A stretch of 51,674 bases of DNA from Conexibacter sp. (GTDB lineage Bacteria > Actinomycetota > Thermoleophilia > Solirubrobacterales > Solirubrobacteraceae), in NCBI GenBank assembly GCA_025964295.1, contig JAOPZD010000430.1, positions 1-51,674 on the forward strand, given 5' to 3'. Positions within the stretch are counted from its first letter, which is position 1; the number at the start of each line of letters is the position of its first letter. The notes beneath the pieces were generated by a model. The model saw nothing but the letters and a program-made list of their open reading frames with translations. It was not told where the DNA came from and made no database searches. This document shows positions 1,250-33,354 of the stretch, piece after piece. Both the position numbers and the translations under genes were made by a program.

Positions 1250-1267
1250 ACTGGCGCTAGCGCCAGT
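1250..1267. promoter_or_regulatory. Operator-like dyad, copy A (perfect palindrome)
   Basis: ACTGGCGCTAGCGCCAGT is a perfect 18-bp palindrome. It lies 66 nt before the GTG start of the acyl-CoA ligase and 5 nt past the stop of the phosphotransferase gene. It is the best-formed of eight related dyads in the window. The binding protein is unknown. Confidence 0.7.
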
Positions 1268-1272
1268 CGCGC

Positions 1273-2307
1273 TCACCAGTCCATCAGGCGGATCATGTCC
1301 TGCCGCAGACCGGGCAGGGCGAAGCGCGTCCACACCATCCGGATGTCGTCCGTCTGGCCCGTGGAATACACGCGCACACCGGTGGCGAGGATCGCCAGCA
1401 ACATCAGCGCCCCGACCACGGAGAACGTCCGCACGACGTCGGTGTCGACGGGCTGCCCCGTGGCCGCCGCGTAGCGCGCGTGGAACCACTCGCGGTCGGC
1501 GACGGCGTTAAGCAGCGACGATCCCGGCTTGGCGAACTTGCCGGCGTGGTAGTCGAGCCCCATGTAGCCGAGGTCGAAGCGGGGGTCTCCGAGGAACGAG
1601 AGCTCCCAGTCCAGGACGCCCGTGATCCGCCGGTCGTCGACCAGGCAGTTCCCGATGCGGTAGTCGCCGTGGACGAGCCGTGGCTCGACCGGCGGTGGAG
1701 TCCGGTCGCGCGCCCACGCGTAGGCCTCCTCGATCACGGGGTCGGGGACCAGTTGCATCTCGTGCTGGATCCCGTGCCAGTGCGTGAGGGTCTGCTGGAA
1801 GTCGCGGGGCGTCACGACGCCGTGCAGGCGCGTGGACGGCAGCGCGTGGATGGCGGCGAGCGCGTCGACGAGGTCCTCGGCGTACCCCCGGTGCTTATCC
1901 CAGTCGGCTTCGAGCACGCGCCGGTCCTTCGGGCGCCAGACGTTGGGCGCCCACCCCGTCAGCCGGCTCATCGCGAAGAACGGCCCGCCGAACGGCGTGT
2001 CCTCGTCGTCGGCCATGCCGTAGACGGCCGGGATGGGGACGGGCTCGTCGGCGAGGATCGCATAGGTCCGGTACTCCTGCCCCAGGTCGGTGTCGAGGAT
2101 CGCGCCCTGGGGGCGGACACGCAGGATCGCCTCGACGGCCCCCTGGTCGGGGTCATCGACGGTCAGCGCCCACGAATGACGGGACCAGCCGCCCTCCAAC
2201 TGCCGCAGGTCGGTCACCGCCGCACCGGCGCCGATGGTGCCGTGCTCGCGCATCACGGTGAGGGCCGCGTCCTTACGCGCGCCGTCCGGGTCGTTGGGCG
2301 TCGTCAT
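1273..2307 (-). CDS. Phosphotransferase family protein (APH/ACAD10-11 type)
   Basis: Protein-kinase-fold small-molecule phosphotransferase of 344 residues. The catalytic loop HGDYRIGN is at residues 213-220 and the Mg-binding DWE at 233-235. Relatives in acyl-CoA clusters resemble the kinase domain of ACAD10/ACAD11, which phosphorylates 4-hydroxyacyl-CoA before elimination. A similar role here is inferred from the acyl-CoA dehydrogenase in the same operon. Antibiotic inactivation is unlikely in this context. The start overlaps the preceding gene by 4 nt (ATGA), so the two are translationally coupled. Confidence 0.88.
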   Translation of the reverse strand: MTTPNDPDGARKDAALTVMREHGTIGAGAAVTDLRQLEGGWSRHSWALTVDDPDQGAVEAILRVRPQGAILDTDLGQEYRTYAILADEPVPIPAVYGMADDEDTPFGGPFFAMSRLTGWAPNVWRPKDRRVLEADWDKHRGYAEDLVDALAAIHALPSTRLHGVVTPRDFQQTLTHWHGIQHEMQLVPDPVIEEAYAWARDRTPPPVEPRLVHGDYRIGNCLVDDRRITGVLDWELSFLGDPRFDLGYMGLDYHAGKFAKPGSSLLNAVADREWFHARYAAATGQPVDTDVVRTFSVVGALMLLAILATGVRVYSTGQTDDIRMVWTRFALPGLRQDMIRLMDW

Positions 2308-2702
2308 GCTTGTGCCCCGGCCAGGGCGGCGACCTCGCGGTCGGCCATCTCCGCCAGCACCCGGTGGACCTCGCGGCGCAGCGCGGCGTCCGCGTCCGCG
2401 GACCCGAGCCCGGTCAAGAGCGTCGTGAGGACGATGCCCACCTCGGCGCCGTCCGTGGCCTCGGCGATCCCCGTGCGCGCCTCGAGTGCGTCGGGCCCGC
2501 CGTCGCGGACGAGCGGGTCCTCCAGCGCCGTCCGCAGCCAGCGCAGCAGGTCGGGCGCGGCGCGCTCCTCGGCTGCCAGGTGCCGGGCGACGCTATAGGC
2601 CGACAGCAACTGGCTGCGCTGGTAGTCGCTGTTCTGCCCACCGTCGTCGGCGGCGGCGCGCAGGACGCGGGCCACGCCGAGGATGAGCTCGTACGGCTTC
2701 AT
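2304..2702 (-). CDS. Small protein, DUF6285-like
   Basis: A 132-residue, Ala/Arg/Leu-rich, apparently all-helical protein with no signal peptide or membrane segment. It begins MKPYELILGVARVL, a pattern I associate with DUF6285 proteins that sit beside phosphotransferases of the ACAD10/11 type. That assignment is from memory of the family and is only moderate. The ATG at 2702 is chosen by this pattern; a GTG at 2714 in the same frame is an alternative. It sits 13 nt after the oxidoreductase stop and overlaps the phosphotransferase start by 4 nt. Its biochemical role is unknown; an accessory subunit for the kinase is a guess from co-occurrence. Confidence 0.7.
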   Translation of the reverse strand: MKPYELILGVARVLRAAADDGGQNSDYQRSQLLSAYSVARHLAAEERAAPDLLRWLRTALEDPLVRDGGPDALEARTGIAEATDGAEVGIVLTTLLTGLGSADADAALRREVHRVLAEMADREVAALAGAQA

Positions 2703-2715
2703 GGGGTTGAACACG

Positions 2716-4711: not shown

Positions 4712-5509
4712 TCAGGCTCCGGTGAAGGCGGGCGTGCGGCGCTCGCGGAACGCGCTGAGCGCCTCCGGGAAGTCGCTGCCCCGGGTCGCCAGGGTCTGGC
4801 CGCGGTTCTCGGTCTCGATGGCGTTGCGCAGTCCGGACGCATCGACGTTGGCGTGCACCACGCGCTTGGTCAGCATCACGCCGAATGGGCTGTTGGCGGC
4901 GATCTGCTCGCCGATGGCGAAGGCCGCGTCGAGCAGCTCGTCGGCCGGCACGACCTGGTTGACGAGGCCGATGCGCTCGGCCTCCTCGGCGTCGACGAAG
5001 CGGCCGGTCAGGAGGATCTCGGACGCGCGCCCGAGCCCGACGATGCGGGGCAGCGACCACGAGACGCCGATGTCCCCGGCGGACAGACCGATCCGGACGA
5101 ACGCGGCGTTGAAGCGGGCCTCCGGCGAGGCGATGCGGATGTCGGCGGCGAGCGCCACGCCGAGACCGCCGCCGGTCGCCGCTCCGTTGACTGCGGCGAT
5201 CACGGGCTGCGGCAGCTCGTGCAGCGCGACCATCGACCCGGCCCAGCGCTCCTGGCCGAGCATCATCTCCGAGGCGGTCATGTCCGGCAGCGTCGCGGCC
5301 TGGTCGAGGTCCAAGCCGGAGCAGAATCCTCGCCCTTCGCCGGTCATGACGACAGCGCGGACCGACGGGTCGGCGGCGATCTCGGCCGCCACCCAGTGGA
5401 ACTCGTCGAACATGCGGAACGTGAGGGCGTTCAGCCGGTCGGGCCGGTTGAGCGTGATCAGCGCGATGCCGGGTCGCGGGTGGGTGAGGGTGAGGGTCTC
5501 GTAGCTCAT
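4712..5509 (-). CDS. Enoyl-CoA hydratase/isomerase (crotonase)
   Basis: Crotonase-fold protein of 265 residues, near the usual length. The CoA-binding stretch ALITLNRPDRLNAL is near residue 16-29, the oxyanion-hole segment GEGRGFCSGLDL near 70, and AVNGAATGGGLGVALAADI near 110. It would hydrate or isomerize an enoyl-CoA made by the dehydrogenase encoded just upstream, with which it overlaps by 4 nt (ATGA). It is one of three crotonases in the window and the sequences are not near-identical, so they probably act on different intermediates. Confidence 0.92.
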   Translation of the reverse strand: MSYETLTLTHPRPGIALITLNRPDRLNALTFRMFDEFHWVAAEIAADPSVRAVVMTGEGRGFCSGLDLDQAATLPDMTASEMMLGQERWAGSMVALHELPQPVIAAVNGAATGGGLGVALAADIRIASPEARFNAAFVRIGLSAGDIGVSWSLPRIVGLGRASEILLTGRFVDAEEAERIGLVNQVVPADELLDAAFAIGEQIAANSPFGVMLTKRVVHANVDASGLRNAIETENRGQTLATRGSDFPEALSAFRERRTPAFTGA

Positions 5510-6732
5510 GCGGTGACTCCAGCGGGGCGCGGATCGTGGAAACGCGACAGCTCGCGCCGTGCGATGGTCTGCTTGTGGATCTCGTCGGCGCCGTCGCCGA
5601 TGCGCAGGTAGCGGTTCCCGCGCCACATGGCGGCCAGCGGGATGTCGTCGCTCACGCCGAGCGCGCCGTGGACCTGGATCGCCCGGTCCAGGACGTCCAT
5701 CGCCATCTGCGTCACGTAGACCTTCGCGATCGAGATCGACTGGCGCGCGTCGCGCTTGCCGATCGTGTCCATCTCCCAGGCCGCACGGGTGGTGAGCAGG
5801 CGCGCCGCGTCGATCTCGATGCGCGAGCGGGCGACGAAGTCCTGGATGAACTGCTTGGCGCCCAGCGGCTCGCCGAAGGTCTGGCGCGAGTTCGCGTAGC
5901 GGCACATCATCTCGTAGCCGCGCTCGGCGAGCCCGAGCAGGCGGAAGCAGTGGTGGATCCGGCCGGGGCCCAGGCGGTTCTGCGCGACGAGGAAGCCCTC
6001 CTGCCGGGCGCCGAGGACCGCGTCGGATGGCACGCGGCAGTCCTCGTAGGCGATCTCCCAGTGCCCGGGGCCGGCGCTGTGCCCCATGTGGGAGATCGGC
6101 CGCACCATCTCGAAGCCCGGCGTGTCCGTCGGGACGATGAGCATCGTCGCGCGCCGGTGCGGGCGGTCGTCAGGGTCGGTGACGGCCATGACGATCGCGA
6201 ACTCGGCGCCGAGCGCGCCGGTCGTGAACCACTTGCGCCCGTTGATCACCCAACTGTCGCCGTCGACCTCTGCGCGGCAGGCGAGGCCGGTCGGGTCCGA
6301 CCCGGAGGTCCCCGGCTCGGTCATCGAGAAGCACGAGCGGAAGTCGCCGGCGAGCATCGGCTCGAGCCAGCGCTCGCGCTGGTCGGCTGTCCCGTGCTCG
6401 GACAGGATCTCCATGTTGCCGCTGTCCGGCGGCTGGCAGTTGAAGACCATCGGGGCCCAGGCGACGCGACCCATCACCTCGCACAGGAGCCCGTACTCGG
6501 CGTGGCCGTAGCCCGGCCCGTACCGCTCATCGGGCATGAACAGGTTCCACAATCCCTCCGCCTGGGCGCGCTCACGGAGGGCGATGAGCGCGTCCGGGAA
6601 AGCGACGTTCGGGCCGACCTCTCGGTCGATCGCGGCGTCGATCTGCGCCTCGACCGGCTCGACGTGCTCGGCGACGAAGGCGCGCAGGCGTTCGGCCGTC
6701 TCGCGGGCCCTGGGAGAGTGCTGGAAGTCCAC
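5506..6732 (-). CDS. Acyl-CoA dehydrogenase
   Basis: Flavin-dependent acyl-CoA dehydrogenase of 408 residues and first gene of the operon. FAD and substrate motifs are visible: FSMTEPGTSGSDPTGL in the middle domain, INGRKWFTTGA, and the C-terminal segments AIQVHGALGVSDDIPLA and YLRIGDGADEIHKQ typical of the ACAD10/11 branch. Together with the phosphotransferase and DUF6285-like genes downstream it makes an ACAD11-style module split over separate genes. An operator-like dyad lies 34 nt before its ATG. Confidence 0.92.
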   Translation of the reverse strand: MDFQHSPRARETAERLRAFVAEHVEPVEAQIDAAIDREVGPNVAFPDALIALRERAQAEGLWNLFMPDERYGPGYGHAEYGLLCEVMGRVAWAPMVFNCQPPDSGNMEILSEHGTADQRERWLEPMLAGDFRSCFSMTEPGTSGSDPTGLACRAEVDGDSWVINGRKWFTTGALGAEFAIVMAVTDPDDRPHRRATMLIVPTDTPGFEMVRPISHMGHSAGPGHWEIAYEDCRVPSDAVLGARQEGFLVAQNRLGPGRIHHCFRLLGLAERGYEMMCRYANSRQTFGEPLGAKQFIQDFVARSRIEIDAARLLTTRAAWEMDTIGKRDARQSISIAKVYVTQMAMDVLDRAIQVHGALGVSDDIPLAAMWRGNRYLRIGDGADEIHKQTIARRELSRFHDPRPAGVTA

Positions 6733-6766
6733 GACTCGATCCTGTCAGCGGGGGTCAGGGCGGGGA

Positions 6767-6784
6767 ACTGTCAGTAGTGCCAGT
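6767..6784. promoter_or_regulatory. Operator-like dyad, copy B
   Basis: ACTGTCAGTAGTGCCAGT matches 14 of 18 positions of the palindrome at 1250-1267. It lies 34 nt upstream of the acyl-CoA dehydrogenase start, in a 172-nt gap that otherwise shows only GC-rich sequence and no clear terminator for the preceding hydratase gene. Confidence 0.6.
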
Positions 6785-7692: not shown

Positions 7693-9279
7693 TTACATTC
7701 GGAAGATCGGCTTGCGGCGCGGCCCGAGCGGGGCGCCGGCGCACGCGGACAAGGCGAGGCCCAGCACGTCCCTGGTGCTGCGGGGGTCGATGACCCCGTC
7801 GTCCCAGAGCCGCGCGCTGGCGTAGTAGGGATGGCCCTGGGTCTCGAACTGCTCGCGGATGACCACCTTGCGCGCCTCGATCGCCTCTGGGTCCGTCTCG
7901 CGACCGACGGTGGCCAGCACGTTCGCGGCCTGGTCGCCGCCCATCACGCTGATGCGGGCGTTCGGCCACATCCAGAGGAAGCGCGGGAAGTACGGTCGTC
8001 CGCTCATGCCGTAGTTCCCGGCGCCGAAGGACCCGCCGACGATGACGGTGAGCTTCGGCACGCGGGCGACCGAGACCGCCGCGACGAGTTTGGCGCCGTC
8101 CTTGGCGATGCCGCGCTCCTCGGCCTCCTTGCCGACCATGAAGCCGGTGATGTTCTGGAGGAAGACGAGCGGGATGCCGCGCTGGTCGCACATCTCGATG
8201 AACTGCGCGCCCTTCAGCGCGCTCGAGGAGAAGATCACGCCCTGGTTGGCGAGGATCCCGACGCGGTGCCCGTGCAGGTGCGCGAAGCCGCAGACGAGGG
8301 TCGTGCCGTAGCCGGCCTTGAACTCGTGGAAGCGGCTGCCGTCGACGATCCGGGCGATGATCTCGCGCGGGTCGTACGGCGTGCGGATGTCGGCGGGCAC
8401 GGCGCCGGTCAGGGTGGCCGGGTCGACGGCGGGCGGCTCCGGGTCGCGCTGCTCCCACGGCGTCGGGCCCTTCGTCGGGAGCGTGTCGACGATCGAGCGG
8501 ATGATCGCCAGGGCGTCGCGGTCGTCGGCGGCGAGATGGTCGGCGACCCCGGAGACCCGGGTGTGCAGGTCGCCACCGCCGAGCTCCTCCGCGGTGACCT
8601 CCTCGCCCGTGGCCGCCTTCACCAGCGGCGGTCCGCCGAGGAAGATCGTCCCCTGCTCCTTGACGATCACCGACTCGTCGCACATCGCCGGCACGTACGC
8701 CCCGCCGGCCGTGCACGAGCCGAGGACCGCGGCGAGCTGCGGGATGCCGTCGGCCGACATGTTCGCCTGGTTGTAGAAGCTCTGGCCGAAGCCGCGCACG
8801 TCCGGGAACAGTTCGTCCTGCAGCGGTAGGTAGCCGCCGCCGGAGTCCACGAGGTAGATGCACGGCAGCCGGTTCTGCCGCGCGATCTCCTGGGCGCGCG
8901 TGTGCTTGCGCGCCGTCATCGGGAAGTACGAGCCGCCCTTCACGGTCGCGTCGTTGCAGATCACCATGACCTCGCGCCCGTGGACGCGGCCGATCCCCGT
9001 GATGATCCCGGCGCCCGGCGCCTGGTCCTCGTACATCCCGTGGGCCGCGAGCGTGGACAGCTCCAGGAACGGCGAGCCGCGGTCGAGCAGCAGCTCGACC
9101 CGGTCACGCGGCAGGAGCTTGCCGCGGGCCACGTGCCGCTCGCGGGAGCGCTCACCCCCGCCGGCCTGCACGCGCGCCCACTGCCGCTGCAGGTCCTCGG
9201 CCAACGCCGCGTGCGCGGCGACGTTGGCCTGATACCCGGCGCTCGACGGGTCGGCGTGGGTACGCAGCACGATGCTCAT
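7693..9279 (-). CDS. Acyl-CoA carboxylase, carboxyltransferase (beta) subunit, MCC-like
   Basis: Carboxyltransferase subunit of 528 residues. Two crotonase-like halves are evident: the N half has [32 protein letters not shown] and [13 protein letters not shown]; the C half has [16 protein letters not shown] and [18 protein letters not shown]. These blocks closely recall 3-methylcrotonyl-CoA carboxylase beta subunits more than propionyl- or acetyl-CoA carboxylases. It transfers CO2 from biotin to an alpha,beta-unsaturated, probably beta-methyl-branched acyl-CoA. It overlaps the biotin subunit gene by 4 nt (ATGA). A second, different carboxyltransferase is at 20599-22197. Confidence 0.9.
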
Positions 9280-11258
9280 GGCGTCGCCTCCAGCTCGACG
9301 AGCGGTTGCCCCTGCTTGACGGAGTCGCCGACCGCCACGAGCACGTCCGCGACCGTCGCGTCGGCCGGCGCGATCAGCGTCAGCTCCATCTTCATCGACT
9401 CGATCACGATCAGCACGACCCCTTCGGTGACGGCATCGCCGGCGGACACGCGGACCTCGAGGACGGTCCCGGGCATGGGCGCCTCGAGCGACCCCTCTGC
9501 GGCGGTGGCCGAGCCCTGTACGACCGGCTCGACCAGCGTGAAGCGGAACGCGTCGGGGCCGGCGGCCACCCAGAGCTCGCCGTCGTGCTCGGCGTGGTCC
9601 CAGACGCGGGTGCGGCCGTCCTCGGTGACGCTCACGCGGCCGGGCGACGAGGCGTGCATCCGCACGTCGCGCTCGCGGTCGCCGGCGCGGACGCGCGCCG
9701 ACGCCGGCGGGCCCTCCACGACGACGGAGCGCGGATCGTCGTCCTCGGCCCCGCGCAGCTGCCAGTCGAGCGGCACCGGCCCGGCGAGGCGGAACCCGAC
9801 GAGCGCGTCCCACGGGTCGCTCCCCGCCTCCTCGTAGTGGCGCAGCGTGGCGGCGGCGGCCACCGCGACGGCGGCGGCCTGCGCCTCGTCGTCGCCGGGC
9901 AGCAAGTCGGCCGCACCCCGCTCGATCAGGCCGGTGTCCAGCGCACCCTCGCGCACGGCCGGCACCCGGAGCAGCCGCCGCAGGAACCCGGCGTTGGTCG
10001 GGAGCCCGAGCAGGCGCAGGTCGCCGAGCGCATGGTCGAGGCGCTCGAGCGCCTCTGCGCGGTCCTCGCCTGAGGCGATCACCTTGGCGATGAGCGAGTC
10101 GTAATACGGCGTGACCTGCGAGCCGACGGTGACGCCGCTGTCGACGCGGACGCCCTCGCCGATCGGCTCGCGGTAGCCCACGAGCGTGCCTGTGCTGGGC
10201 AGGAAGTCGTGCGCGGGGTCCTCGGCGCAGACCCGGACCTCGATGGCGTGCCCGCGGAGTTGCACGTCGGACTGGGCGAAGGACAGGCGCTCGCCGGCGG
10301 CGACGCGGAGCTGCTGCTCGACGAGGTCCAGGCCGGTGACGAGCTCGGTCACCGGATGCTCGACCTGAAGGCGCGCGTTGACCTCCAGGAAGAACCACTC
10401 GTCCAGGTCGTCGGCCGACACGAGGAACTCCGCGGTGCCGGCGCCGACGTACCCGGCGGCGTGGGCCAGGGCGACGGACGCTGCGCCCAGCTGCTCGCGG
10501 AGGCCGGCGGAGACGACCGGCGACGGGCTCTCCTCGACGACCTTCTGGTGCCGGCGCTGCAGGCTGCACTCGCGCTCGCCGAGGTGGACGACCGTGCCGT
10601 GGGCGTCGGCCAGCAGCTGCACCTCGATGTGCCGCGCCCGCTCGACGTAGCGCTCGGCCAGCAACGCGTCGTCACCGAAGCCGGACAGCGCCTCGCGGCG
10701 CGCGGCGGCCAGGGCGTCGGGGAGGTCGGCGAGGGTGCGGACGACGCGCATGCCGCGCCCGCCACCGCCCGCCGCGGCCTTGATCATCAGCGGGAGGCGG
10801 CCGGCGTCCTCCTCGGCGAAGGCGACGATCTCCGCGTCCGTCAGCCCGGGCCGCTGCAGCCCCGGAAGGACCGGCACGCCGGCGGCGACCGCGACCTCCT
10901 TGGCCGTGACCTTATCGCCGAGGCGCTCGGTCGCCTCCGGGGGCGGGCCGATGAACACGACGCCGGCGGCGGCGCACGCTCGGGCGAACGCGGCGTTCTC
11001 CGAGAGGAACCCGTAGCCCGGGTGGATCGCCTGGGCGCCGGTCGCTCGGGCGGCCTCGAGCACCAGGTCGGGTGCGAGATAGGAGTCGGCGGCGGGCGCG
11101 GGACCCAGGCGCACGGCGACGTCCGCGAGCCGGACGTGCGGCGCGTCGGCGTCGGCGTCGGAGTAGACCGCGATCGACTGCACGCCCAGCCGGGCGAGGG
11201 TGCGGATCACCCGGACCGCGATCTCACCGCGGTTGGCGACGAGGACCGAGTCGAACAT
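9276..11258 (-). CDS. Acyl-CoA carboxylase, biotin carboxylase/BCCP (alpha) subunit
   Basis: A 660-residue biotin-containing subunit. The N-terminal biotin carboxylase (about 1-445) starts [18 protein letters not shown] and has the ATP-grasp loop [12 protein letters not shown] and [14 protein letters not shown]. The C-terminal carrier domain has ESMKME with the biotinylated lysine at about 623. It pairs with the overlapping beta subunit. I chose the ATG at 11258 because related enzymes begin there; a GTG at 11327 would add 23 residues and would place the dyad 35 nt upstream, as seen for two other operons, so it deserves checking. Confidence 0.9.
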
Positions 11259-11362
11259 CCGCGGAGGGCCCGGGAGGCCGGCTGGGACGGCGGCACCGGA
11301 GGGGCAGGAGAGTCGTTGCGGCGTCACTCAGATCAACCTATCTGCGCTCTGTGGGGCGGCCT

Positions 11363-11380
11363 ATAGGCGGAACCGCCAGT
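11363..11380. promoter_or_regulatory. Operator-like dyad, copy C
   Basis: ATAGGCGGAACCGCCAGT matches 13 of 18 positions of the perfect copy, with the inner arms GGCGG/CCGCC intact. It sits in the 123-nt gap between the CoA ligase stop and the carboxylase alpha start. This is the weakest of the eight copies. Confidence 0.5.
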
Positions 11381-15455: not shown

Positions 15456-15492
15456 GGTTGTGCGGTCCTTGTCCGTAAAGAGGTCGAGGCGT

Positions 15493-15528
15493 GGGCGCGC
15501 CGGCGAAGCGCAGTTCGCCGGCGCGCCC
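15493..15528 (-). terminator. Large hairpin between binding-protein and permease genes
   Basis: A perfect 15-bp inverted repeat, GGGCGCGCCGGCGAA / TTCGCCGGCGCGCCC, with a 6-nt loop, begins 6 nt after the binding-protein stop. There is no T-run. In ABC operons such hairpins usually stabilize the binding-protein message or partly attenuate the permease and ATPase genes, which would give an excess of binding protein. That role is inferred. Confidence 0.7.
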
Positions 15529-15534
15529 GCTGAG

Positions 15535-16698: not shown

Positions 16699-16716
16699 CC
16701 TGGCGCTTCTGCCAGT
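16699..16716. promoter_or_regulatory. Operator-like dyad, copy D
   Basis: CCTGGCGCTTCTGCCAGT matches 14 of 18 positions of the perfect copy. It lies in the 206-nt divergent gap, 75 nt upstream of the binding-protein gene. Copy E lies 49 bp away centre to centre. Confidence 0.6.
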
Positions 16717-16747: not shown

Positions 16748-16765
16748 ACTGGCAATTGCGCCAGC
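16748..16765. promoter_or_regulatory. Operator-like dyad, copy E
   Basis: ACTGGCAATTGCGCCAGC matches 14 of 18 positions of the perfect copy. It lies 64 nt upstream of the plus-strand gene starting at 16830, so copies D and E are placed to control the divergent pair. Confidence 0.6.
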
Positions 16766-17843: not shown

Positions 17844-17847
17844 GCCC

Positions 17848-18849: not shown

Positions 18850-18880
18850 GCCGCGGGCGGCTCAGCGCGTCGCCCGCGGC
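18850..18880. terminator. GC hairpin between convergent genes
   Basis: A perfect 10-bp stem, GCCGCGGGCG / CGCCCGCGGC, with an 11-nt loop, covers the 24-nt gap between the convergent LLM and MaoC-like genes and runs into the latter's last codons. It could end transcription from both sides. It has no T-run, so the call is tentative. Confidence 0.5.
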
Positions 18881-19704: not shown

Positions 19705-19722
19705 ACTGTCGCAACCGCCAGG
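19705..19722. promoter_or_regulatory. Operator-like dyad, copy H
   Basis: ACTGTCGCAACCGCCAGG matches 14 of 18 positions of the perfect copy. It sits 51 nt before the MaoC-like gene, in a 133-nt gap with no other recognizable feature. Confidence 0.55.
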
Positions 19723-26043: not shown

Positions 26044-26739
26044 GTGGTGGAATCATCGGCAGCGATGGCACTCCCTCCCCCCACCGATGCCGAGCTCCCC
26101 CCGGGCGCGCCGCTGCTCCCCCCGCCGGCCGAGCCGCCCTCCGGCGCCAGCCTCACGGCGGAGAAGCTGCTGCAGGCGGCGCACGAACTGCTCTACGAGC
26201 GGTCGGGGGGACACGCGGCCGTGAGCGAGATCTGTGCCCGGGCCGGCGTGAACGTCGCGATGGTGAGCTACTGCTTCGGCAGTAAGGACGGCCTGCTCGA
26301 CGCCCTCGTCGAACGGGTCATGCTGCAGCTGAGCGCCGACATCGGTCGACTCGCGCTAAGCGAGCTGACGCCGTCTGAGATGCTCGAGCTCCACGTCGCT
26401 GCGATCGTCCGCAACTATGTCCGCTACCCCTACGTCAACCGGCTCATGAACGAGCGGCTGCTGTCGGCCGACGGACCGGCGGTCGACCGGATGAGCCTGG
26501 CCTTCGCCGTCCCCGCCCGCGACTGGTACGCGGACCTCCTGCAGCAGGGTCGTGAGCTGGAGGGCTGGCGCGAGACCGATCCGACGCTCTTCTTCTTCTC
26601 CGTGATCGGGCTGTGCGAGTTCCTGTTCGCGGGTCGCGCCTGGCTCGAACGCGCCTTCGCGCAGCCGATGGACGCCGCGCTGGTCGAGCGGTTCATCGAG
26701 CACACGACCGGGCTGATCGCCCGCGCGATGCGTCCATGA
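26044..26739 (+). CDS. TetR-family transcriptional regulator
   Basis: About 231 residues from the GTG at 26044. A Pro-rich N-tail precedes the helix-turn-helix LTAEKLLQAAHELLYERSG ... VSEICARAGVNVAMVSYCFG (about 37-80), the canonical TetR pattern. GTG at 26047 and ATG at 26065 are alternative starts; an AAGGGG run just upstream favours the GTGs. It is divergent from atuA, so it probably represses the carboxylase operon in response to an acyl-CoA. Its stop overlaps the start of the following sensor kinase gene (ATGA). Confidence 0.88.
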   Translation: MVESSAAMALPPPTDAELPPGAPLLPPPAEPPSGASLTAEKLLQAAHELLYERSGGHAAVSEICARAGVNVAMVSYCFGSKDGLLDALVERVMLQLSADIGRLALSELTPSEMLELHVAAIVRNYVRYPYVNRLMNERLLSADGPAVDRMSLAFAVPARDWYADLLQQGRELEGWRETDPTLFFFSVIGLCEFLFAGRAWLERAFAQPMDAALVERFIEHTTGLIARAMRP

Positions 26740-28739
26740 CGAGCGGCGCGCTCGACACGCTGGTCGACGCGATCGGCCTGGCACTGGACTGCGACGCGCT
26801 GCTCATGGCCGACCGCACGACCGACGGGACTCTGCGCACGGCCGCGACCCGCGGCCTGTCGGTCGAGACGGCCGAGCTGCTGCTCGCGGGGCTGGCCGAC
26901 GCCGACACGGACATGCTGCGCGGCGGTCCGCGGACGCTCCGAGACCTGTCCGCGCAGGCGGCGGACGGGTTGGCGCAGCGGAACGTGATGGGCGCGTTCT
27001 GCGTTGCGACCGAACCCAACGCGACCGCGCCGGGCGTCTTCTGCGCGCTGAGCTTCCGCGGCGACGTGAGCCCGGACGCCGACCTGCTCGTAACCTTCGC
27101 TCGGCACGCCGGCGTCGCGATGGCGCAGCGGACGGCGCCGGCGCTGCTCAAGGGGGTCGCGGCGGGCGACGACGCGTTCGACGGCCTCGCCCTGTCCACC
27201 CACAACCTCGAGGAGCTGACGCACGCCGTCGGCCGCATCGTTCACCAGATCCTCGGCTACCCGATGACCGCGATCATGGTCTACGACGAGGACCGCGGCG
27301 TCCTGCAGATGACCCCGGGCTCGTTCGATGCGGACCATGCAACGACGGCCTCCTATCAGATCCCGGTCACAAATCTGCGTAGTAACGCGGCCCGCGTCTT
27401 CGCCACGGGACATCCCTATCTCTCGAACGACGCGCCGGTCGATCCCGGCATCCGCCCGGGCTACGCGGACGCCTTCGGCATCGCGCGACTGCTGTCGGTG
27501 CCCTTGCGCATGGGCGAGCGCCCGACGGGCGTACTCCACCTGGCCAACAAGACGGGCGACTTCACCACTGAGGACGTCGTCCGCGCGCAGGCGCTCGCGG
27601 CACGCATCGCCACGGTCGTGGAGATCGCCCGGACCTCGTTCCGCCTCGACCGCGAGCAGCGGCTCCAGCGTGTCCTCTCCGGCATCGCTGTCGCGATCGC
27701 CCGGGGCGACGGTCTCCAGGACTTCCTCTCCCCGGCCCTTCGCGAGCTGTGCGAGGTGACGGGCGCGTGCTTCATCGCGTTGGTCCCCGAGCGCGCGGCA
27801 CCGGTTTCCTGCCGGGGCGAAGATCCGCGGCCGGACCTCGAGCAGCTCCTGATCGAGGAGGCGCGGACGCAACCGCAGGCTTGCGCGACGGTCGTGCCTC
27901 CGACGACGATCGGCGACCCCGGCTGGGCCAAGGTCCACGTGCCGATCGAACTGCGCGGCGGACGAGTAGGCACGCTCTCAGCCCTGCGCTCACGCGGTGA
28001 GCCGTTCGCCCCTGACGAGCAGCACGCGATCGCACGCCTGGCCCAACTGGCCGCGCTGGCATGGGCGACCGAGCGCTACCAGCAGCAGCGCGCCGGGCTG
28101 GCGCGCGGGGAGGAACGCCGCGGCATCTCCGACGAGCTCCACGACGACGTCCAGCGGATCCTCCGGGAGGCTCAGCGGGAGATCGACGCGGTCCTCGCCG
28201 GGTCGCGCGACCTGGACGCGGAGACGACGCGCGACGTGCAGCGCGCCCGCGGCCTCGTCGTCCGCGGGACGAGTGCGATCCGGGACGCCGTCCACCGGGT
28301 GGACCGACCGGTGGAGGACGACCTGTGCGGCCGTCTGCAGACGATCGCTTCGGCGGCACGCGACGAGTTCCCTCTGACCATCTCCGTCGAGCTTCCCGAG
28401 GACGCGTGCCGCGCGACGAGTGCGCTGGCGACGCCCGGTGCCGACGCGCTGCTCCGGGTGGCGAGGGAGGCGCTCGTCAACGCCGCAAAGCACGGTGGCG
28501 AGTGCTGCGTCACCGTCAGGCTGGAGCTGCTCCCTGGGGCACGCATCCGACTGGTCGTCGAGGACGACGGTCCGGGCATCAGCGCGCGCACCCGCAGCGC
28601 CCACCACGGTCTGGGCTTCCTCCGCCGCACGCTCAAGGATCATGGCGGCCGGCTGGAGCTCCGTTCCGGGGCCTCCGGGGGCACCCGCGTCGTGGCGACG
28701 TTGCCGGCGGCGACGTCGGTCCCTTCCACGGTGTCGTAG
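26736..28739 (+). CDS. GAF-domain sensor histidine kinase (HisKA_3), canonical
   Basis: A cytosolic 667-residue kinase with no membrane segment. Two or three GAF-like regions (about 1-150, 160-335, 345-455) precede a HisKA_3 dimerization box with SDELHDDVQ; phospho-acceptor His at about 469. The ATPase domain has an intact N-box (REALVNAAKHGG, Asn about 582) and EDDGPGIS. It is the same architecture as the minus-strand kinase at 28640-30772, and the two share blocks such as ATERYQQQR/ATERYQRQR. It is translationally coupled to the TetR gene, and its last 100 nt overlap the other kinase gene head to tail. A natural partner is the regulator at 30792-31460. Confidence 0.87.
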   Translation: MTSGALDTLVDAIGLALDCDALLMADRTTDGTLRTAATRGLSVETAELLLAGLADADTDMLRGGPRTLRDLSAQAADGLAQRNVMGAFCVATEPNATAPGVFCALSFRGDVSPDADLLVTFARHAGVAMAQRTAPALLKGVAAGDDAFDGLALSTHNLEELTHAVGRIVHQILGYPMTAIMVYDEDRGVLQMTPGSFDADHATTASYQIPVTNLRSNAARVFATGHPYLSNDAPVDPGIRPGYADAFGIARLLSVPLRMGERPTGVLHLANKTGDFTTEDVVRAQALAARIATVVEIARTSFRLDREQRLQRVLSGIAVAIARGDGLQDFLSPALRELCEVTGACFIALVPERAAPVSCRGEDPRPDLEQLLIEEARTQPQACATVVPPTTIGDPGWAKVHVPIELRGGRVGTLSALRSRGEPFAPDEQHAIARLAQLAALAWATERYQQQRAGLARGEERRGISDELHDDVQRILREAQREIDAVLAGSRDLDAETTRDVQRARGLVVRGTSAIRDAVHRVDRPVEDDLCGRLQTIASAARDEFPLTISVELPEDACRATSALATPGADALLRVAREALVNAAKHGGECCVTVRLELLPGARIRLVVEDDGPGISARTRSAHHGLGFLRRTLKDHGGRLELRSGASGGTRVVATLPAATSVPSTVS

Positions 28740-30772
28740 TCGACCGGCACGACCGCGGCGAGCTGCATCCCGCCTGTGCTGCCGCGGCTCAGCCGCAGCG
28801 TCCCCCCGTGCTCCGCCAGCGCCGCGCGCTGGCGGCCGAGCCATCCATCGCCGACCACCGTTGGCCCTTCCCCGCCCGCGCTGTCGGCGACGATGCTCAG
28901 CGCGAGGCGGCCGTCCGCCAGCACGTCCAGCCCGACCGTCAGCCGGTGCGGCCCGTCCTCGGACACCGCCTCGACCACGACCGCCCGCGCGATCTCCATG
29001 AGCACCTTCGTCGTCGACCGGCGTAGGCGTTTGGCGGACGCGACCGTATCGTCCTCCAGGCGCAGGTGGATGGCGGACGCGAACCGCTGCTCGACCGACG
29101 AGACCAGGGACGCCAGCTGGCGCCCGAGGTCGGACGGCTGCGGCGCGGACAGGCGGGTGATCACGGTGCGGATCGCCGTGTCGCCCTGTACCAGGAGTCC
29201 TCGCGCGCGCGTCAATCTGATGCCAGCCTCACTGGAGACGCTCGGGCGCTCCAGCGCCGCGTCCAGGCTCATCTGCGCGGCGAACAGCAGCTGCGCGACG
29301 TCGTCGTGCAGGTCCTCCGCGATGCGCTGCCGCTCGTGCAGGCGGGCGAGCTCGACCCGCTGGCGTTGGTACCGCTCAGTTGCGCGCGCCAGCGCGGCGA
29401 GGTTCGCGAGCCGGTCCAGCGCGCCGCGCTCGTCGCGCGAGAACGGCTCGGCGCGCCGGCGCAGCGCAACGAGCGTTCCGACCCGCTGACGCGCGAGCCA
29501 CGCCGGCAGGTGGAGGGCCCCCCAACCGGTGCCGCCGGCCTCGGTCGGTGACACGACGTACGCCCGGATGCCTGGGGCCTGCGCCGCTTCGTCCAGGACG
29601 GACCGCTCGATGGCGGCGGGGAGCTCGGGGGCGCGGTGGATGATCGGCGCGCCGTCCACCGGGACGAAGGCGATGAGGTCGGCGGCGGTGACCTCGGCCA
29701 GCGCCGCGAACGTCACCGGGAGGAGCTCGGTCATCTCGGCACCCGATGCCACCCCGACCGCGGCGTCGGACAGGATCTCCTCGAGCTGGCGCTGCTGCCG
29801 GAGCCGGAAGCGCGTGCCGGCCAGGTCGACGGCGGCCGCGACCTTCGGGGCCAGCGCGTCGGCCCGCTCGACGTCCTCGGCCGCGAACTCGTCGGTCGCG
29901 TCGGCGAGGTGGAGGACGCCGACATCGCGGCCCGCCATCACCAGCGGGACGGACAGAATCCGGGAGAGGCCGAAGCTGACGACGTCGGAGTCGCCGTCCC
30001 CGAGCTCGTCCGTCACGTCGTTGGAGTAGAACGAGCAGCCTGTGGCCAGCACCCTCGTCGAGTGCGCGCGCAGGTCGAACGCGCTGACCTGGCACGCGGA
30101 AGTCGCCTCGTCCGGCGCGCCGAACGAGCCCGGCAGCAGCTGTAGGACGTCGCGGCGGTCGTCCCGCACCATCACCCCGCTCCGGGTCGCGCCGAAGAGC
30201 GGCGCCACGACGGCGTCGACCGCGCGCGTGAGCTCCCCGAACGTGTTGGCCGACAGCACGAGCTGATCAAGAATCGCAAGCGACCGCGCGCGGGCCCTGG
30301 CGGCGAGGACGCTGTCGACGCCGCCGCCCTCCCCCTCGAGGCCCATCGCCGTCTGCCGCGCGAAAACCGGCGCGAGCTCCTCGTTGGTGAACGCCCCGAG
30401 GTCGCGCTTCAGCGCAACGACCGCCGCGAGCGGCCGGCCGGGCTCCAGCTCGGCGACCGCACCGAGCAGCGCGGCGAACCCCTGTCGGACGAGCGTCTCG
30501 GCGTGCGGGACCCCGCCGGTGAAGAGCGACGGGATCGACAGCTCCCCCATCCGGACAAGGTCGGGCACGATCGCGGCGAGGACCGGCTCCAGGCGCGCGC
30601 ACTGAACGTCGTCGAGCCCGCACGCGGCGACCAGCGACCACGTGTCTCCCTGGTCACGACCGAGCGCGACGATCGCGTCGCTGTCGAACGCGCGCTGCGC
30701 CGTCTCGGCGACGCCGGCCAGGTCGACCTCGGGCGCGGAGCGAGCGGTGGCGCGCAGGGCCATGGCGCTCAT
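28640..30772 (-). CDS. GAF-domain sensor kinase with degenerate ATPase domain
   Basis: A 710-residue protein with GAF-like regions and a HisKA_3 box AEDLHDDVAQ (His about 489). The ATP-binding part is altered: where the paralogue has REALVNAAKHGG this protein has ARAVVVEAVSEDG, losing the N-box Asn and the Lys-His, and VVEDDGPG is replaced by IVADSAGG. It may therefore be a pseudokinase that senses ligand and is phosphorylated by, or dimerizes with, the canonical kinase. It follows the response regulator by 19 nt. The 3' end is antisense to the end of the convergent kinase gene for 100 nt. Confidence 0.85.
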   Translation of the reverse strand: MSAMALRATARSAPEVDLAGVAETAQRAFDSDAIVALGRDQGDTWSLVAACGLDDVQCARLEPVLAAIVPDLVRMGELSIPSLFTGGVPHAETLVRQGFAALLGAVAELEPGRPLAAVVALKRDLGAFTNEELAPVFARQTAMGLEGEGGGVDSVLAARARARSLAILDQLVLSANTFGELTRAVDAVVAPLFGATRSGVMVRDDRRDVLQLLPGSFGAPDEATSACQVSAFDLRAHSTRVLATGCSFYSNDVTDELGDGDSDVVSFGLSRILSVPLVMAGRDVGVLHLADATDEFAAEDVERADALAPKVAAAVDLAGTRFRLRQQRQLEEILSDAAVGVASGAEMTELLPVTFAALAEVTAADLIAFVPVDGAPIIHRAPELPAAIERSVLDEAAQAPGIRAYVVSPTEAGGTGWGALHLPAWLARQRVGTLVALRRRAEPFSRDERGALDRLANLAALARATERYQRQRVELARLHERQRIAEDLHDDVAQLLFAAQMSLDAALERPSVSSEAGIRLTRARGLLVQGDTAIRTVITRLSAPQPSDLGRQLASLVSSVEQRFASAIHLRLEDDTVASAKRLRRSTTKVLMEIARAVVVEAVSEDGPHRLTVGLDVLADGRLALSIVADSAGGEGPTVVGDGWLGRQRAALAEHGGTLRLSRGSTGGMQLAAVVPVDYDTVEGTDVAAGNVATTRVPPEAPERSSSRPP

Positions 30773-30791: not shown

Positions 30792-31460
30792 TCACAGCTC
30801 GGGTTGCGTCATGCCGGCCTCGCCGGCGGGCGCGATGAAGCCCGTGCGGATCGCCTTCGCGATCAGCTCGGTCTTCGTCCGGGCGGCGAACTTCGCCTTC
30901 AGCTTCTGGACGTGGAAGCGGACGGTCGACTCGGAGATGAAGAGGCGGGCGCCGATCTCGTGGTTCGTCAGGCCCTGCGCCGCGAGCTCAAGCACGCGCT
31001 CCTGTTGCGGCGTGGGCATGGCCTCGAGCATCCGCCCAGCGACCAGCTCGTGGAGCTGCTTGACGATCTGCGGGCCGGCATTGGCGTCCTGCTGCACGGT
31101 CCCCGCCATGACGCGGTCGATCGCGGCGCGGAGCTCTGGCAGCCCGGCCGCCTTGGTGACGTACGCGGCTGCCCCTGCCTGAAGGCAGCTGCGGACGGTC
31201 TCCTCGCTCAGATATGTCGTGAGGATGATCACCGCGGTCGACGGGAAACGCTCGCGCAGCGCGCGCGTGAGGTCCTCGCCCGTCATGTCGGGGAGGCGCA
31301 GGTCGACCACCGCGATGTCGGGCAGCGTCCGCCGCGCGAGAGCCAGCGCGTCGGCGGCGGTCGCCGACGTGCCGACCACCTCGAGGCGCGGATCCGCCGA
31401 CAGCGAAGCCTTCAGACCCTCCCGAACGACCTCGTGGTCGTCGACGATCAGGATTCGCAC
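30792..31460 (-). CDS. NarL/FixJ-family response regulator
   Basis: A 222-residue regulator. The receiver domain begins VRILIVDDHEVVREGLK, with phospho-acceptor Asp at about 53 in VVDLRLPDM and the conserved Lys in AAYVTKAAG. The LuxR-type helix-turn-helix is at about 150-206, with LTNHEIGARLFISESTVRFHVQKLKAKF. The GTG at 31460, with AGAGAGGA upstream, is chosen because the receiver fold starts there. It is transcribed with the degenerate kinase. Its targets are unknown, but it is one candidate for the protein that binds the 18-bp dyads nearby. Confidence 0.9.
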   Translation of the reverse strand: MRILIVDDHEVVREGLKASLSADPRLEVVGTSATAADALALARRTLPDIAVVDLRLPDMTGEDLTRALRERFPSTAVIILTTYLSEETVRSCLQAGAAAYVTKAAGLPELRAAIDRVMAGTVQQDANAGPQIVKQLHELVAGRMLEAMPTPQQERVLELAAQGLTNHEIGARLFISESTVRFHVQKLKAKFAARTKTELIAKAIRTGFIAPAGEAGMTQPEL

Positions 31461-31557: not shown

Positions 31558-31590
31558 CGTCGCCGCACTTTCCTCAGCGCGGCGGCGACG
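31558..31590 (-). terminator. Hairpin after the acyl-CoA ligase gene
   Basis: A perfect 9-bp stem, CGTCGCCGC / GCGGCGACG, with a 15-nt loop lies 2 nt beyond the ligase stop, in the direction of transcription. It lacks a T-run. It may end the ligase transcript before the response regulator gene. Confidence 0.5.
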
Positions 31591-31592
31591 AC

Positions 31593-33299
31593 CTACTGTC
31601 TCCGGATCGATGCCGGTGCGGCAACTGGCGGAACCGACAGTTCCAGCGGCGCGAGGAGATCGCGCGGCCGGGACCGCCCGTTCTCGTGCCCGTTCGCGTA
31701 CCACTCGCGCAGGAGGAACTTCTTCGGCTTGCCACCGGCGGTCCGTGGGAGCTCGTCGATAACGTGGACCGTCCGTGGCTTCTTGAAGCCCGCGAGGTGG
31801 CGAGTGCAATAGGCGACGACCTCGTCGACGTCGATGGTCGAGCCGGGCACGGGCTGGACGACGGCGCAGACCGTCTCGCCCCACTTCTCGTGCGGCAGGC
31901 CGACGACGGCGATGTCGGCGACGAGTGGATGAGTGCGCAGGACGTCCTCGATCTCGGCCGGGAAGATGTTCATGCCCCCGCTGATGATCATGTCGCCGCG
32001 GCGGCCCGAGATGTACAGGAGGCCCTCGTCGTCGAGATAGCCCATGTCGCCCGTATAGAGCCACTCGTCCTCGGTGATCAGCCGCGCGGTCATCTCCTTG
32101 TCGTCCCAGTACCCGGCGGTGACCGAGGCCCCGCGGACGATGATCTCGCCGTCGGTGTGAGCGGGCACCTCGACGCCGTCCGTGCCGACGATCCGGATCT
32201 CGGAGAACATCGACGCGCGACCGGCGGATCCGGGCTTGCGGCGCGCGTCGGCCGGCGTGATCCGCGAGAGCGACGCCCCGCCCTCGGTCAGGCCGTAGAC
32301 CTGGATGAAGTCGACGTCCGGAAGCAGCTCCTGCGCGCGCAGGGTGGTGGCTTTGGAGACGGCCTGCCCGCCGCACATGATCATCTCCAGCCCCGAGAGG
32401 TCGATGTCGCCGATCATCGGGAGCGCGAGGATCTCGTAGAGCATCGTGGGGACCCACAGCACGTGGGTGATCCGGTGCTCGGACACGTACCGCACGACGG
32501 CCTCGGGGTCGAAGCCGCCCGAGCGCTTCACGTGCGCCGTGCCCCCCTGCTGCAGGATCGGCAGCGTGAAGTCGTGGCGGCCGCCGATGTAATAGAGGTC
32601 GATGATCGCGTAGGTCGAGTGCTGCGGCCCGAGCTGATAGTCAATGACCTGCTGCATCGCGTTGAACAGGACGGTGCCGTTGGACCAGACGACGCCCTTC
32701 GGCTCCCCGGTCGTCCCCGACGTGAAGATGATCTCGTGGGGATCCTCGAGCGTCCCCATCCCAACCGGCAGATCCGCGGAGGAGGAGGCGCAGAGCTCCT
32801 CGTAGTCGAGATCGGAGGTGCCGCCGTCGCCGAGAGCGATCATCGTCCGCAGGTCGGGCACAGCCCCGGAGCGGCGCAGCTCCACGACCGTCGGCAGGAA
32901 CCGCTCCTCGACGAAGATCGTGCGGACGCCGGCGCGCCGCAGCAGCGTCGCGAGCTCCCCGGCGCGTAGGCGCCAGTTGAGAGGGACCATGATCGCCCGG
33001 GCCGCAGCGATGCCGATCTCGATCTCGAGGAACTCGACCCGGTTGGTCGTCAGGACCGCGACACGGTCCATCGGTTGCAGACCGAGGCCGAGAAGCCCGT
33101 TGGCCACCCGGCGGCTGCGGTCCCGCAACTCGCCGTAGGTGCGCGAGGTGTCCTCGAAGAGGATCGCCTGGGTTCCCAGGTCGAGCCCCTGGCGCTCGAC
33201 GAGGTACGGCAGCGTGAGCCGGTTCCAGCGGGCCGACGTCGACAGGTCGACGCGCACGTTCTCGCGATCGTAACCATCGTGGGGACCCTGGCGTGGCAT
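31593..33299 (-). CDS. Acyl-CoA ligase (AMP-binding, FadD-like)
   Basis: A complete ANL-superfamily ligase of about 568 residues. FTSGTTGEPKG is the phosphate loop, YGLTEGGAS the A5 motif, YTGDMGYLDDEG the hinge region and PRTAGGKPKK the A10 lysine region. It is the full-length paralogue of the ligase at the left edge. The ATG at 33299 is chosen by alignment with that paralogue and lies 37 nt from dyad copy G. A separate promoter and a terminator hairpin suggest it is monocistronic. Confidence 0.9.
   Translation of the reverse strand: MPRQGPHDGYDRENVRVDLSTSARWNRLTLPYLVERQGLDLGTQAILFEDTSRTYGELRDRSRRVANGLLGLGLQPMDRVAVLTTNRVEFLEIEIGIAAARAIMVPLNWRLRAGELATLLRRAGVRTIFVEERFLPTVVELRRSGAVPDLRTMIALGDGGTSDLDYEELCASSSADLPVGMGTLEDPHEIIFTSGTTGEPKGVVWSNGTVLFNAMQQVIDYQLGPQHSTYAIIDLYYIGGRHDFTLPILQQGGTAHVKRSGGFDPEAVVRYVSEHRITHVLWVPTMLYEILALPMIGDIDLSGLEMIMCGGQAVSKATTLRAQELLPDVDFIQVYGLTEGGASLSRITPADARRKPGSAGRASMFSEIRIVGTDGVEVPAHTDGEIIVRGASVTAGYWDDKEMTARLITEDEWLYTGDMGYLDDEGLLYISGRRGDMIISGGMNIFPAEIEDVLRTHPLVADIAVVGLPHEKWGETVCAVVQPVPGSTIDVDEVVAYCTRHLAGFKKPRTVHVIDELPRTAGGKPKKFLLREWYANGHENGRSRPRDLLAPLELSVPPVAAPASIRRQ
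31624..31641. promoter_or_regulatory. Operator-like dyad, copy F (inside CDS end)
   Basis: ACTGGCGGAACCGACAGT matches 14 of 18 positions of the perfect copy. It falls in the last codons of the acyl-CoA ligase and 163 nt upstream of the response regulator. Because it is coding sequence it may be a chance match; otherwise it could control the regulator-kinase pair. Confidence 0.4.
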
Positions 33300-33336
33300 G
33301 CTCGCGTGAGTCTGGCAGCTCGACCCGGCACGGCGT

Positions 33337-33354
33337 ACTGGCAGTTGCGCCAGC
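33337..33354. promoter_or_regulatory. Operator-like dyad, copy G
   Basis: ACTGGCAGTTGCGCCAGC matches 13 of 18 positions of the perfect copy and nearly equals copy E (two differences). It lies 37 nt before the acyl-CoA ligase start. A further half-site, CACTGGC, follows at about 33368. Confidence 0.6.

What the first reader, a model, noticed from the sequence alone, without database searches (positions are those of the whole stretch)
1250..33354. Eight copies of one 18-bp dyad define a candidate regulon over 33 kb
Dyads related to ACTGGCGCTAGCGCCAGT occur at 1250, 6767, 11363, 16699, 16748, 19705, 31624 and 33337. Seven lie in intergenic gaps in front of an acyl-CoA ligase (twice), the acyl-CoA dehydrogenase operon, a carboxylase operon, the importer and divergent DUF7064-LLM pair, and the MaoC-like gene. 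Spacing to the start codon clusters near 34-37 nt (copies B and G, and C if the GTG is used) and 64-75 nt (A, D, E). None was seen to the right of 33.4 kb. This links import, activation and breakdown under one unidentified regulator.
Basis: partly seen in the sequence, partly recalled or inferred. Interest (0 to 1): 0.78.

Follow-up and report, generated by a model that had tools for sequence, protein, structure and literature searches.

The report
Two-component activator regulon for catabolic genes
The repeated 18-base mirror sequence is most likely the landing site of a DNA-binding switch protein encoded in the same cluster, placed at a fixed distance from the promoters of genes for breaking down an unknown, possibly terpene-like, compound; the same switch and site recur in related soil bacteria.

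Summary
The eight dyads are real and above chance: with a matrix built from the other seven, each held-out site is the best remaining position in the window. The regulator can be proposed. A NarL/DosR-type response regulator (RR, 30792-31460, minus) beside GAF histidine kinases is the shared element: 13 of 13 loci around its orthologs (Thermoleophilia, Nocardioides, Frankia, Nocardia, Rhodococcus and others) hold the motif, with 27 sites scoring >=17 in 0.23 Mb against 0 in 1.10 Mb around 74 distant RRs. Two weaker RR paralogs have one weak match and none. Sites recur upstream of orthologs of the same operon-first genes and hardly ever upstream of internal genes. A fixed feature suggests the mechanism: a -10 box (nAnnnT) lies 22 nt past the site in 32 of 48 sites, against 5 of 48 on the opposite flank. 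The site then centres near -43.5, where class II activators sit. This also explains the two start-codon spacings as leaderless (34-37 nt) versus led (64-75 nt) mRNAs. The TetR gap has a different conserved sequence. Binding, direction of control, inducer and substrate are untested. Searches of the held paper library listed no paper on it.

The parts
1250..1267 (.). Site A, perfect 18-bp dyad; -10-like CAAGCT at 1222-1227 (-)
6767..6784 (.). Site B; -10-like CAGGAT at 6739-6744 (-); GTG at 6732 would be leaderless
11363..11380 (.). Site C (weakest); -10-like TAGGTT at 11335-11340 (-); GTG at 11327 would be leaderless
16699..16716 (.). Site D, in front of the importer; -10 only partly matched (TCTAGT)
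16748..16765 (.). Site E, in front of DUF7064; -10-like GAGGCT at 16788-16793 (+); ATG 16830 with leader
19705..19722 (.). Site F, in front of 18862-19653; no -10 at the fixed spacing
31624..31641 (.). Site G, inside the 3' end of the ligase, upstream of the RR; -10-like GACAGT one base further out (31595-31600, -)
33337..33354 (.). Site H, in front of the ligase; -10-like CAGACT at 33309-33314 (-); ATG 33299 near-leaderless
30792..31460 (-). NarL/DosR-type response regulator (222-aa form; ORF open to 31568); proposed binder of the dyads; recognition helix SESTVRFHVQKLK
28640..30772 (-). HK2, GAF histidine kinase without clear membrane segment; phospho-acceptor His kept, ATP-binding N, D and G boxes degenerate
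26613..28739 (+). HK1, GAF histidine kinase paralog; ATP-binding boxes intact, H-box altered (HDDVQR for HDDVAQ)
1..1183 (-). acyl-CoA ligase (cut by window end; named from its translation and kinship with the other ligase), target of site A
5506..6732 (-). acyl-CoA dehydrogenase, first gene of the operon behind site B (then ECH, LLM-type, zinc ADH, 2304-2825, APH-type)
9276..11327 (-). biotin carboxylase/carrier protein (by translation and kinship; not scanned with Pfam), target of site C
12952..16623 (-). ABC importer (Peripla_BP_4 binding protein, BPD_transp_2 permease, ATPase), target of site D
16830..18837 (+). DUF7064 protein and LLM-type (Bac_luciferase) oxidoreductase, target of site E
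18862..19653 (-).
31593..33299 (-). acyl-CoA ligase, target of site H

Best explanation
The dyads are operators of the NarL/DosR-type response regulator encoded at 30792-31460. When phosphorylated by its soluble GAF-domain kinase(s), which sense an intracellular cue, the regulator binds the 18-bp palindrome ACTGKCR-N4-YGMCAGT as a dimer. The site spans about -52 to -35 and stands in for a -35 element, so the regulator activates as a class II activator on a -10 box 22 nt away. The regulon couples import, CoA activation and breakdown of a carboxylated, perhaps isoprenoid or alicyclic, substrate. Some targets start at or next to the ATG/GTG (leaderless), others carry a short leader. Shown by computation: the motif, its recurrence, its linkage to this RR family, and the fixed -10 spacing. 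Inferred: binding, phosphorylation, activation rather than repression, transcription starts, inducer, substrate.
For: Leave-one-out motif test. 13 of 13 RR-ortholog loci hold a match >=13; >=17: 27 sites/0.23 Mb in 12 of 13 loci vs 0/1.10 Mb near 74 distant RRs. Seven of the 13 were found by RR sequence alone after the matrix was fixed. The window's TetR and GntR proteins had no best-match homolog in the 6 loci or the 14 (two of them the same), where the RR recurs. Sites upstream of orthologs: ligase 7 of 7 (6 of 7 with the second ligase as query), ACAD 6 of 6, DUF7064 6 of 6, LLM 5 of 5, carboxylase 1 of 1; internal genes 3684 0 of 9, ECH 4712 0 of 6, ECH 19787, CT and BC 22710 0 of 5 each, APH-type 1 of 9. 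Counting only loci fetched by RR or protein, not by the pattern: ligase 5 of 5 genomes, ACAD 3 of 3, LLM 3 of 3, DUF7064 3 of 3 (from the rows). -10 at fixed spacing 32 of 48 vs 5 of 48; outside the window 29 of 43 vs 4 of 43, Fisher 3e-8; RR-anchored loci alone 17 of 21 vs 2 of 21. Recognition helix TVRFH in the window RR and the 13 ortholog-locus RRs, while the 74 distant RRs read TVKSH 63, TVKNY 7, TVRER 2, TVKFH 1, unread 1. In G1020 8 of 19 pattern places lie within 75 kb of the RR, binomial 2.7e-8.
Against: No binding or expression data. Genome-wide, the pattern is not clearly above its reversed control: slightly above in G936, G1057, G1020 and G1050, well below in G926, G899 and G114 and below in G001-G006. 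Only clustering, context and spacing mark true sites. Two RR paralogs in G1020 with the same TVRFH helix have one weak match (L156) and none (L159) nearby. Site F lacks the -10 at this spacing, D matches it partly and G is off by one. Site G's place upstream of the RR is not conserved (0 of 9). L002's only match is weak (14.3) and inside an ORF. Other kinds of regulators in the ortholog loci were not catalogued. The ATP-binding half of the kinase next to the RR is degenerate.
Confidence: 0.86

Rival explanations
1. The dyads are operators of the TetR-family repressor at 26044-26739.
For: It lies in the cluster beside AtuA, and TetR proteins often bind palindromes of this size (general knowledge).
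Against: No TetR homolog was listed at the RR-ortholog loci. One TetR ortholog (66%) was found, in G1020 locus L185, again divergent from AtuA, and that gap shares an AT-rich sequence with the window (TTAAATAATCATTTAGTTGATGTCAAGG / CTAAATGAACGTTTATTTGAATGTCAAGG) and holds no dyad.
Confidence: 0.04
2. The dyads are bound by a regulator outside the window (or one of the GntR proteins at 40801-42223), with the RR only a neighbour.
For: The window's own genome is not held, so unlinked regulators could not be listed, and regulators in the relatives' loci were not catalogued beyond homologs of window proteins. The GntR proteins lie 7 kb to the right.
Against: A regulator elsewhere would not explain the linkage of sites to this RR in 13 of 13 loci from distant genera, nor the different recognition helix. 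No GntR homolog of the window was listed in the loci.
Confidence: 0.08
3. The dyads repress: the RR or another protein bound there blocks RNA polymerase.
For: A NarL-type LuxR-family protein represses cyp108j1 in Rhodococcus sp. P14 (PMC7037279, passages read).
Against: The site sits upstream of the -10 at one fixed distance, covering the -35 place, and none of 48 promoters has 5 or more of 6 bases of TTGACA there (16 have 4), which suits activation. Repressor sites usually vary in place (general knowledge).
Confidence: 0.08
4. Chance palindromes or a non-regulatory repeat (terminator, repeat family).
For: GC-rich DNA is rich in short palindromes; the pattern is not clearly over-represented genome-wide.
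Against: Leave-one-out and Markov controls, sites upstream of orthologs, fixed -10 spacing.
Confidence: 0.01

Closest known systems
DosR/DevR-OsdR regulon (NarL-type RR with GAF kinases, Actinobacteria)
   Same: Best sequence match of the RR in the PDB is DevR 3c3w, E 1e-36. Palindromic sites of similar length. That DosS/DosT are GAF kinases is recalled.
   Different: Site ACTGKCR-N4-YGMCAGT versus the OsdR consensus AGGGCCGATCGGCCCT, which that paper says conforms well to the M. tuberculosis one (PMC5069765, passages read). Recognition helix TVRFH, versus TVKNY recalled for DevR. Targets are catabolic genes, not dormancy genes.
MadR / PRK15369 / MctR / NarL models (NCBIfam)
   Same: Same fold; best curated models are MadR 150 bits, PRK15369 127, MctR 117, NarL 110.
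   Different: All 25 models shown (of 31 matched) are below their cut-offs (for these four 300, 242, 300, 250), so none names this RR.
NarL of Rhodococcus sp. P14 (represses cyp108j1)
   Same: LuxR-family regulator beside catabolic genes, palindromic site.
   Different: Site GAAAGTTG-CAACTTTC; repressor; the words 'histidine kinase' do not occur in its main text (passages read).
Pseudomonas acyclic terpene utilisation (atu) regulon with TetR-type AtuR (recalled)
   Same: AtuA and a biotin-dependent carboxylase occur here, with a TetR gene beside AtuA.
   Different: The dyads are not linked to the TetR, and no dyad precedes AtuA in the window.

Membership tests
NarL/FixJ (LuxR-type) response regulators | receiver domain plus GerE/LuxR helix-turn-helix | tested here: met
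   PF00072 2.1e-24 and PF00196 4.7e-14
NarL/FixJ (LuxR-type) response regulators | acidic pocket, phospho-acceptor Asp and Lys of the receiver | tested here: met
   D43, D44, D89, K139 invariant in the 7 aligned sequences; their roles are recalled
DosR/DevR regulators | DosR-type operator (as OsdR AGGGCCGATCGGCCCT) | tested here: not met
   site consensus differs
DosR/DevR regulators | recognition-helix residues of DevR (KTVKNY, recalled) | tested here: not met
   STVRFH in the window RR and orthologs
Class II transcription activators | site overlapping the -35 place at a fixed distance from the -10 | tested here: met
   32 of 48 sites with A and T of nAnnnT at offset 22-27; opposite flank 5 of 48
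Class II transcription activators | activation and contact with RNA polymerase shown | not testable with these tools
   needs transcription assays
Cognate two-component pair | kinase gene adjacent to the RR across genomes | tested here: met
   kinase homolog beside the RR in L001, L003-L006, L152-L155, L158; in L160 about 5 kb away; L002 ends at the RR; in L157 none recognised
Cognate two-component pair | kinase with intact DHp and ATP-binding boxes | tested here: inconclusive
   H, N, D and G boxes broadly kept in the 9 relatives aligned (L155 varies in the D box); in the window split between HK1 and HK2
TetR-type AtuR regulon | dyads linked to the TetR gene | tested here: not met

The most novel reading that the evidence does not exclude
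In this organism the sensor kinase has been divided between two diverging paralogs. HK2, beside the RR, keeps the phospho-acceptor histidine and the H+5 glutamine but has lost the ATP-binding boxes. HK1 keeps the ATP-binding boxes but has an altered H-box (glutamine to arginine). They would work only as a heterodimer, HK1 phosphorylating HK2 in trans and HK2 passing the phosphate to the RR and removing it, so that two cytosolic GAF sensors must agree before a catabolic regulon opens.
Probability: 0.35. Interest if true: 0.72.

Novelty: new member of a known kind. Interest (0 to 1): 0.6.

Why it matters
It turns eight look-alike sequences in a contig of unknown origin into a proposed switch with a DNA code, a promoter layout and a target list that can be read in relatives. 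In Thermoleophilia, a group with little experimental genetics (general knowledge), the site marks genes of unknown function (DUF7064, LLM-type enzymes, hydantoinase-type pairs) as one pathway. DUF7064 relatives at E <= 1e-60 occur in 3 of 349 genomes of the class, all three among the 8 of 349 that carry the RR. It also explains a bimodal start-codon spacing as leaderless versus led mRNAs.

Tried and rejected
Plain consensus search with up to 3 mismatches finds only copy A; a weight matrix was needed. Genome-wide pattern counts are not clearly above the reversed-pattern control, so whole-genome frequency was dropped as evidence; clustering, orthology and -10 spacing were used. Autoregulation of the RR through site G: not conserved (0 of 9). 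TetR and GntR as binders: disfavoured as above. Conserved -35 hexamer: none with 5 or more matches in 48. PDB sequence search of HK2 gave no match at E 0.001; Foldseek of its model gave mainly phytochromes and PDE6, with query TM-scores of 0.15-0.32 among the 50 shown, which names no ligand. Plasmid searches gave matches covering at most 6% of a 20-kb query, or under 60% identity to the RR. Papers: the listings showed none on this motif or regulon; two papers were read in passages (PMC7037279, PMC5069765); no paper in the library holds the word DUF7064.

Limits of the counts. Gene calls are mechanical (GC-frame plots, longest ORF). For the -10 test, 37 loci gave 83 distinct sites >=15.5; 9 without a candidate gene downstream were dropped (5 of those 9 have the -10 on a flank) and 74 kept; 48 of the 74 have a candidate gene on one side only. 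L197 (one site, 20.9, inside an ORF), L002, L105, L106, L156 and L159 were not in the 37. Of the 74, 49 have the -10 on at least one flank; weak matches (8-12) in the same loci 9 of 46, middling ones (12-15.5) 10 of 20, distant RR loci 0 of 25. The 13 ortholog loci leave out the G1020 paralogs L156 and L159; L157 and L158, with model scores like or below that of L156, were kept and have sites. One search counts loci, of which several overlap (L152/L169, L154/L182/L186, L153/L164/L193, L195/L203, L102/L205, L198/L204), and part of its loci (L102-L104, L107, L162-L202) were fetched because they hold pattern matches or lie beside them, which favours the positive counts; the unbiased subset is given in the For line. 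Its rows for ligase 11382 (3 of 3) and the carboxylase (1 of 1) come from pattern-fetched loci only, and that ligase has no dyad of its own in the window.
Full report
OBSERVATION. Their core is ACTGKCR-N4-YGMCAGT. They differ from copy A by 4-5 letters, so a simple mismatch search misses them, and two unrelated positions also differ by 4. A palindromic matrix separates them: 20.0-26.2 against 11.7 for the next window position. Leave-one-out scores are 15.1-24.7, and each held-out site is still the best remaining position. Forty Markov sequences of the same length gave 3 scores of 15 or more in total, the largest 19.7. Nothing to the right of 33.4 kb exceeds chance.

WHERE. A, B, C, D, E, F and H precede genes: ligase, acyl-CoA dehydrogenase operon, biotin carboxylase, importer, DUF7064-LLM, 18862-19653 and ligase. 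G lies in the end of the ligase gene, upstream of the response regulator. The MaoC-like label for 18862-19653 found no Pfam support.

WHICH REGULATOR. The window's genome is not held. A scan of genome contigs with the RR found orthologs at 73% (Solirubrobacterales, L001), 56% (L002; Nocardioides immobilis, L003), 46-47% (Frankia canadensis L004, Nocardia alni L005, Rhodococcus koreensis L006) and then 43% or less. All six loci hold a match >=13 by the window-only matrix; that of L002 is weak and inside an ORF. Searching further genomes by RR sequence alone gave seven more ortholog loci: G114, G936, G1057, G1020, G1050, G926 and G899. All seven hold sites, in L153 and L154 one letter-for-letter equal to copy A. 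Together: 13 of 13 loci with a match >=13, 12 of 13 >=17; >=17: 27 in 233,507 bases, against 0 in 1,103,340 bases around 74 distant RRs. Two weaker paralogs of G1020 have one weak match and none. The RR is rare at E <= 1e-58: 8 of 349 (class of G001), 2 of 401 (family of G006), 1 of 294 (family of G003), 1 of 150 (genus of G005), 1 of 35 (order of G004), 2 of 296 (class of G003). A kinase homolog lies beside it in 10 of the 13 loci (L001, L003-L006, L152-L155, L158), about 5 kb away in L160; L002 is cut at the RR and in L157 none was recognised. Homologs of the window's TetR and GntR proteins were not listed there; other regulators were not catalogued. The recognition helix reads STVRFH in the window RR and the 13 ortholog-locus RRs, but TVKSH (63), TVKNY (7), TVRER (2) or TVKFH (1) in the 74 distant RRs, one unread.

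WHICH GENES. In fetched loci, sites >=11 stand upstream of orthologs (>=55% identity) of the ligases (7 of 7 and 6 of 7), acyl-CoA dehydrogenase (6 of 6, three of them weak at 11.5-13.8), DUF7064 (6 of 6 loci, three genomes), LLM (5 of 5), biotin carboxylase (1 of 1) and ligase 11382 (3 of 3). Operon-internal genes lack them: 3684 0 of 9, ECH 4712 0 of 6, ECH 19787, carboxyltransferase and biotin carboxylase 22710 0 of 5 each; the APH-type gene 1273 1 of 9. Some of these loci were fetched for their pattern matches; in those fetched by RR or protein alone the counts are ligase 5 of 5 genomes, dehydrogenase 3 of 3 (one weak), LLM 3 of 3, DUF7064 3 of 3. Other genera use the same site at other catabolic sets: R. 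koreensis alpha/beta hydrolase, aldehyde dehydrogenase, flavin monooxygenase, LLM, SDR; G114 a hydrolase and an aldehyde dehydrogenase flanking two sites; Frankia an importer binding protein, as at site D. In four relatives (L001, L152-L154) the ligase is followed by two ~700-aa genes, identified by Pfam in L152 only, as hydantoinase A/B type. In G1020 8 of 19 pattern places lie within 75 kb of the RR, and an outlying one precedes DUF7064.

HOW IT WORKS. In 48 sites with one possible target, the downstream flank has A at offset 23 in 73% and T at offset 27 in 79%; the opposite flank has 17% and 19%. Both letters together: 32 of 48 against 5 of 48, with at most 4 at any other offset from 3 to 59; outside the window 29 of 43 against 4 of 43, Fisher 3e-8. 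In RR-anchored loci alone it is 17 of 21 against 2 of 21. This is a -10 box (nAnnnT) 22 nt past the site. With usual -10 numbering the site covers about -52 to -35, centre -43.5, the class II activator position. No promoter of the 48 has 5 or more of 6 bases of TTGACA at 16-18 nt spacing; 16 have 4. In the window A, B, C, E and H have both letters, G has them one base further, D one of two, F neither. The expected start lies near offset 34, so B, C and H would be leaderless or nearly so, and A, D and E have leaders of about 30-40 nt.

THE KINASES. HK2 and HK1 have no strong membrane segment by hydropathy (best 19-residue means 1.67 and 1.38). HK2 has Pfam GAF matches and models, in my reading of its secondary structure, as GAF-like domains, a DHp helix pair and a catalytic domain (mean pLDDT 81.7, pTM 0.52). 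HK2 has lost the N box (VEAVSEDG for VNAAKHAG), D box and G box; HK1 keeps them but has HDDVQR for HDDVAQ in the H-box. The pair may act as a divided kinase (inference).

RIVAL TETR. The AtuA-TetR gaps of the window and of G1020 share an AT-rich sequence and hold no dyad, so the TetR probably has its own operator at the AtuA operon.

COMPARISON AND NOVELTY. By fold and kin this is a DevR/NarL-type RR, but it is below the cut-offs of the 25 curated models shown of 31 matched and does not share the OsdR operator. Literature searches (listings) showed nothing on this motif or regulon. I file it as a new member of a known kind. The report check changed several counts and caveats but none that alters the odds.

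Noticed in passing
window 33744-33882: A minus-strand stretch looks like the 3' half of a tRNA-Ser, anticodon loop onward (my reading; ARAGORN finds no tRNA; Rfam gives a sub-threshold match to RF04351). Directly beyond it an E2 acyltransferase ORF (33882, +) appears to start inside its lipoyl domain (my reading of the sequence). It may be the attachment site of an integrated island carrying the regulon, or an assembly junction.
   Followed up: partly
window 26613-30772: Two GAF kinase paralogs with complementary decay: HK2 without ATP-binding boxes, HK1 with an altered H-box.
   Followed up: partly
window 26003-26043 and L185 about 9110-9185: AT-rich shared sequence in the AtuA-TetR gap, candidate operator of the TetR.
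   Followed up: partly
window 16776-17843: DUF7064 relatives (E <= 1e-60) occur in 3 of 349 genomes of the class, all RR-positive; no paper in the library holds the word DUF7064.
   Followed up: yes
L152 5005-9275 (similar-sized genes in L001, L153, L154): Hydantoinase A/B-type pair, the B protein with an acetone-carboxylase-gamma-like tail, behind the site-bearing ligase; not seen in the window.
   Followed up: no
window 42954-51670: Aromatic-ring hydroxylase-type FAD monooxygenase and an Mce-type transporter (four MlaD-domain genes, ATPase) without dyads.
   Followed up: no
G899:C1 331468, 1204364, 1706899: The same 18-mer ACTGTCGCCATAGACAGT three times far apart, perhaps a repeat family unrelated to the regulon.
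   Followed up: no
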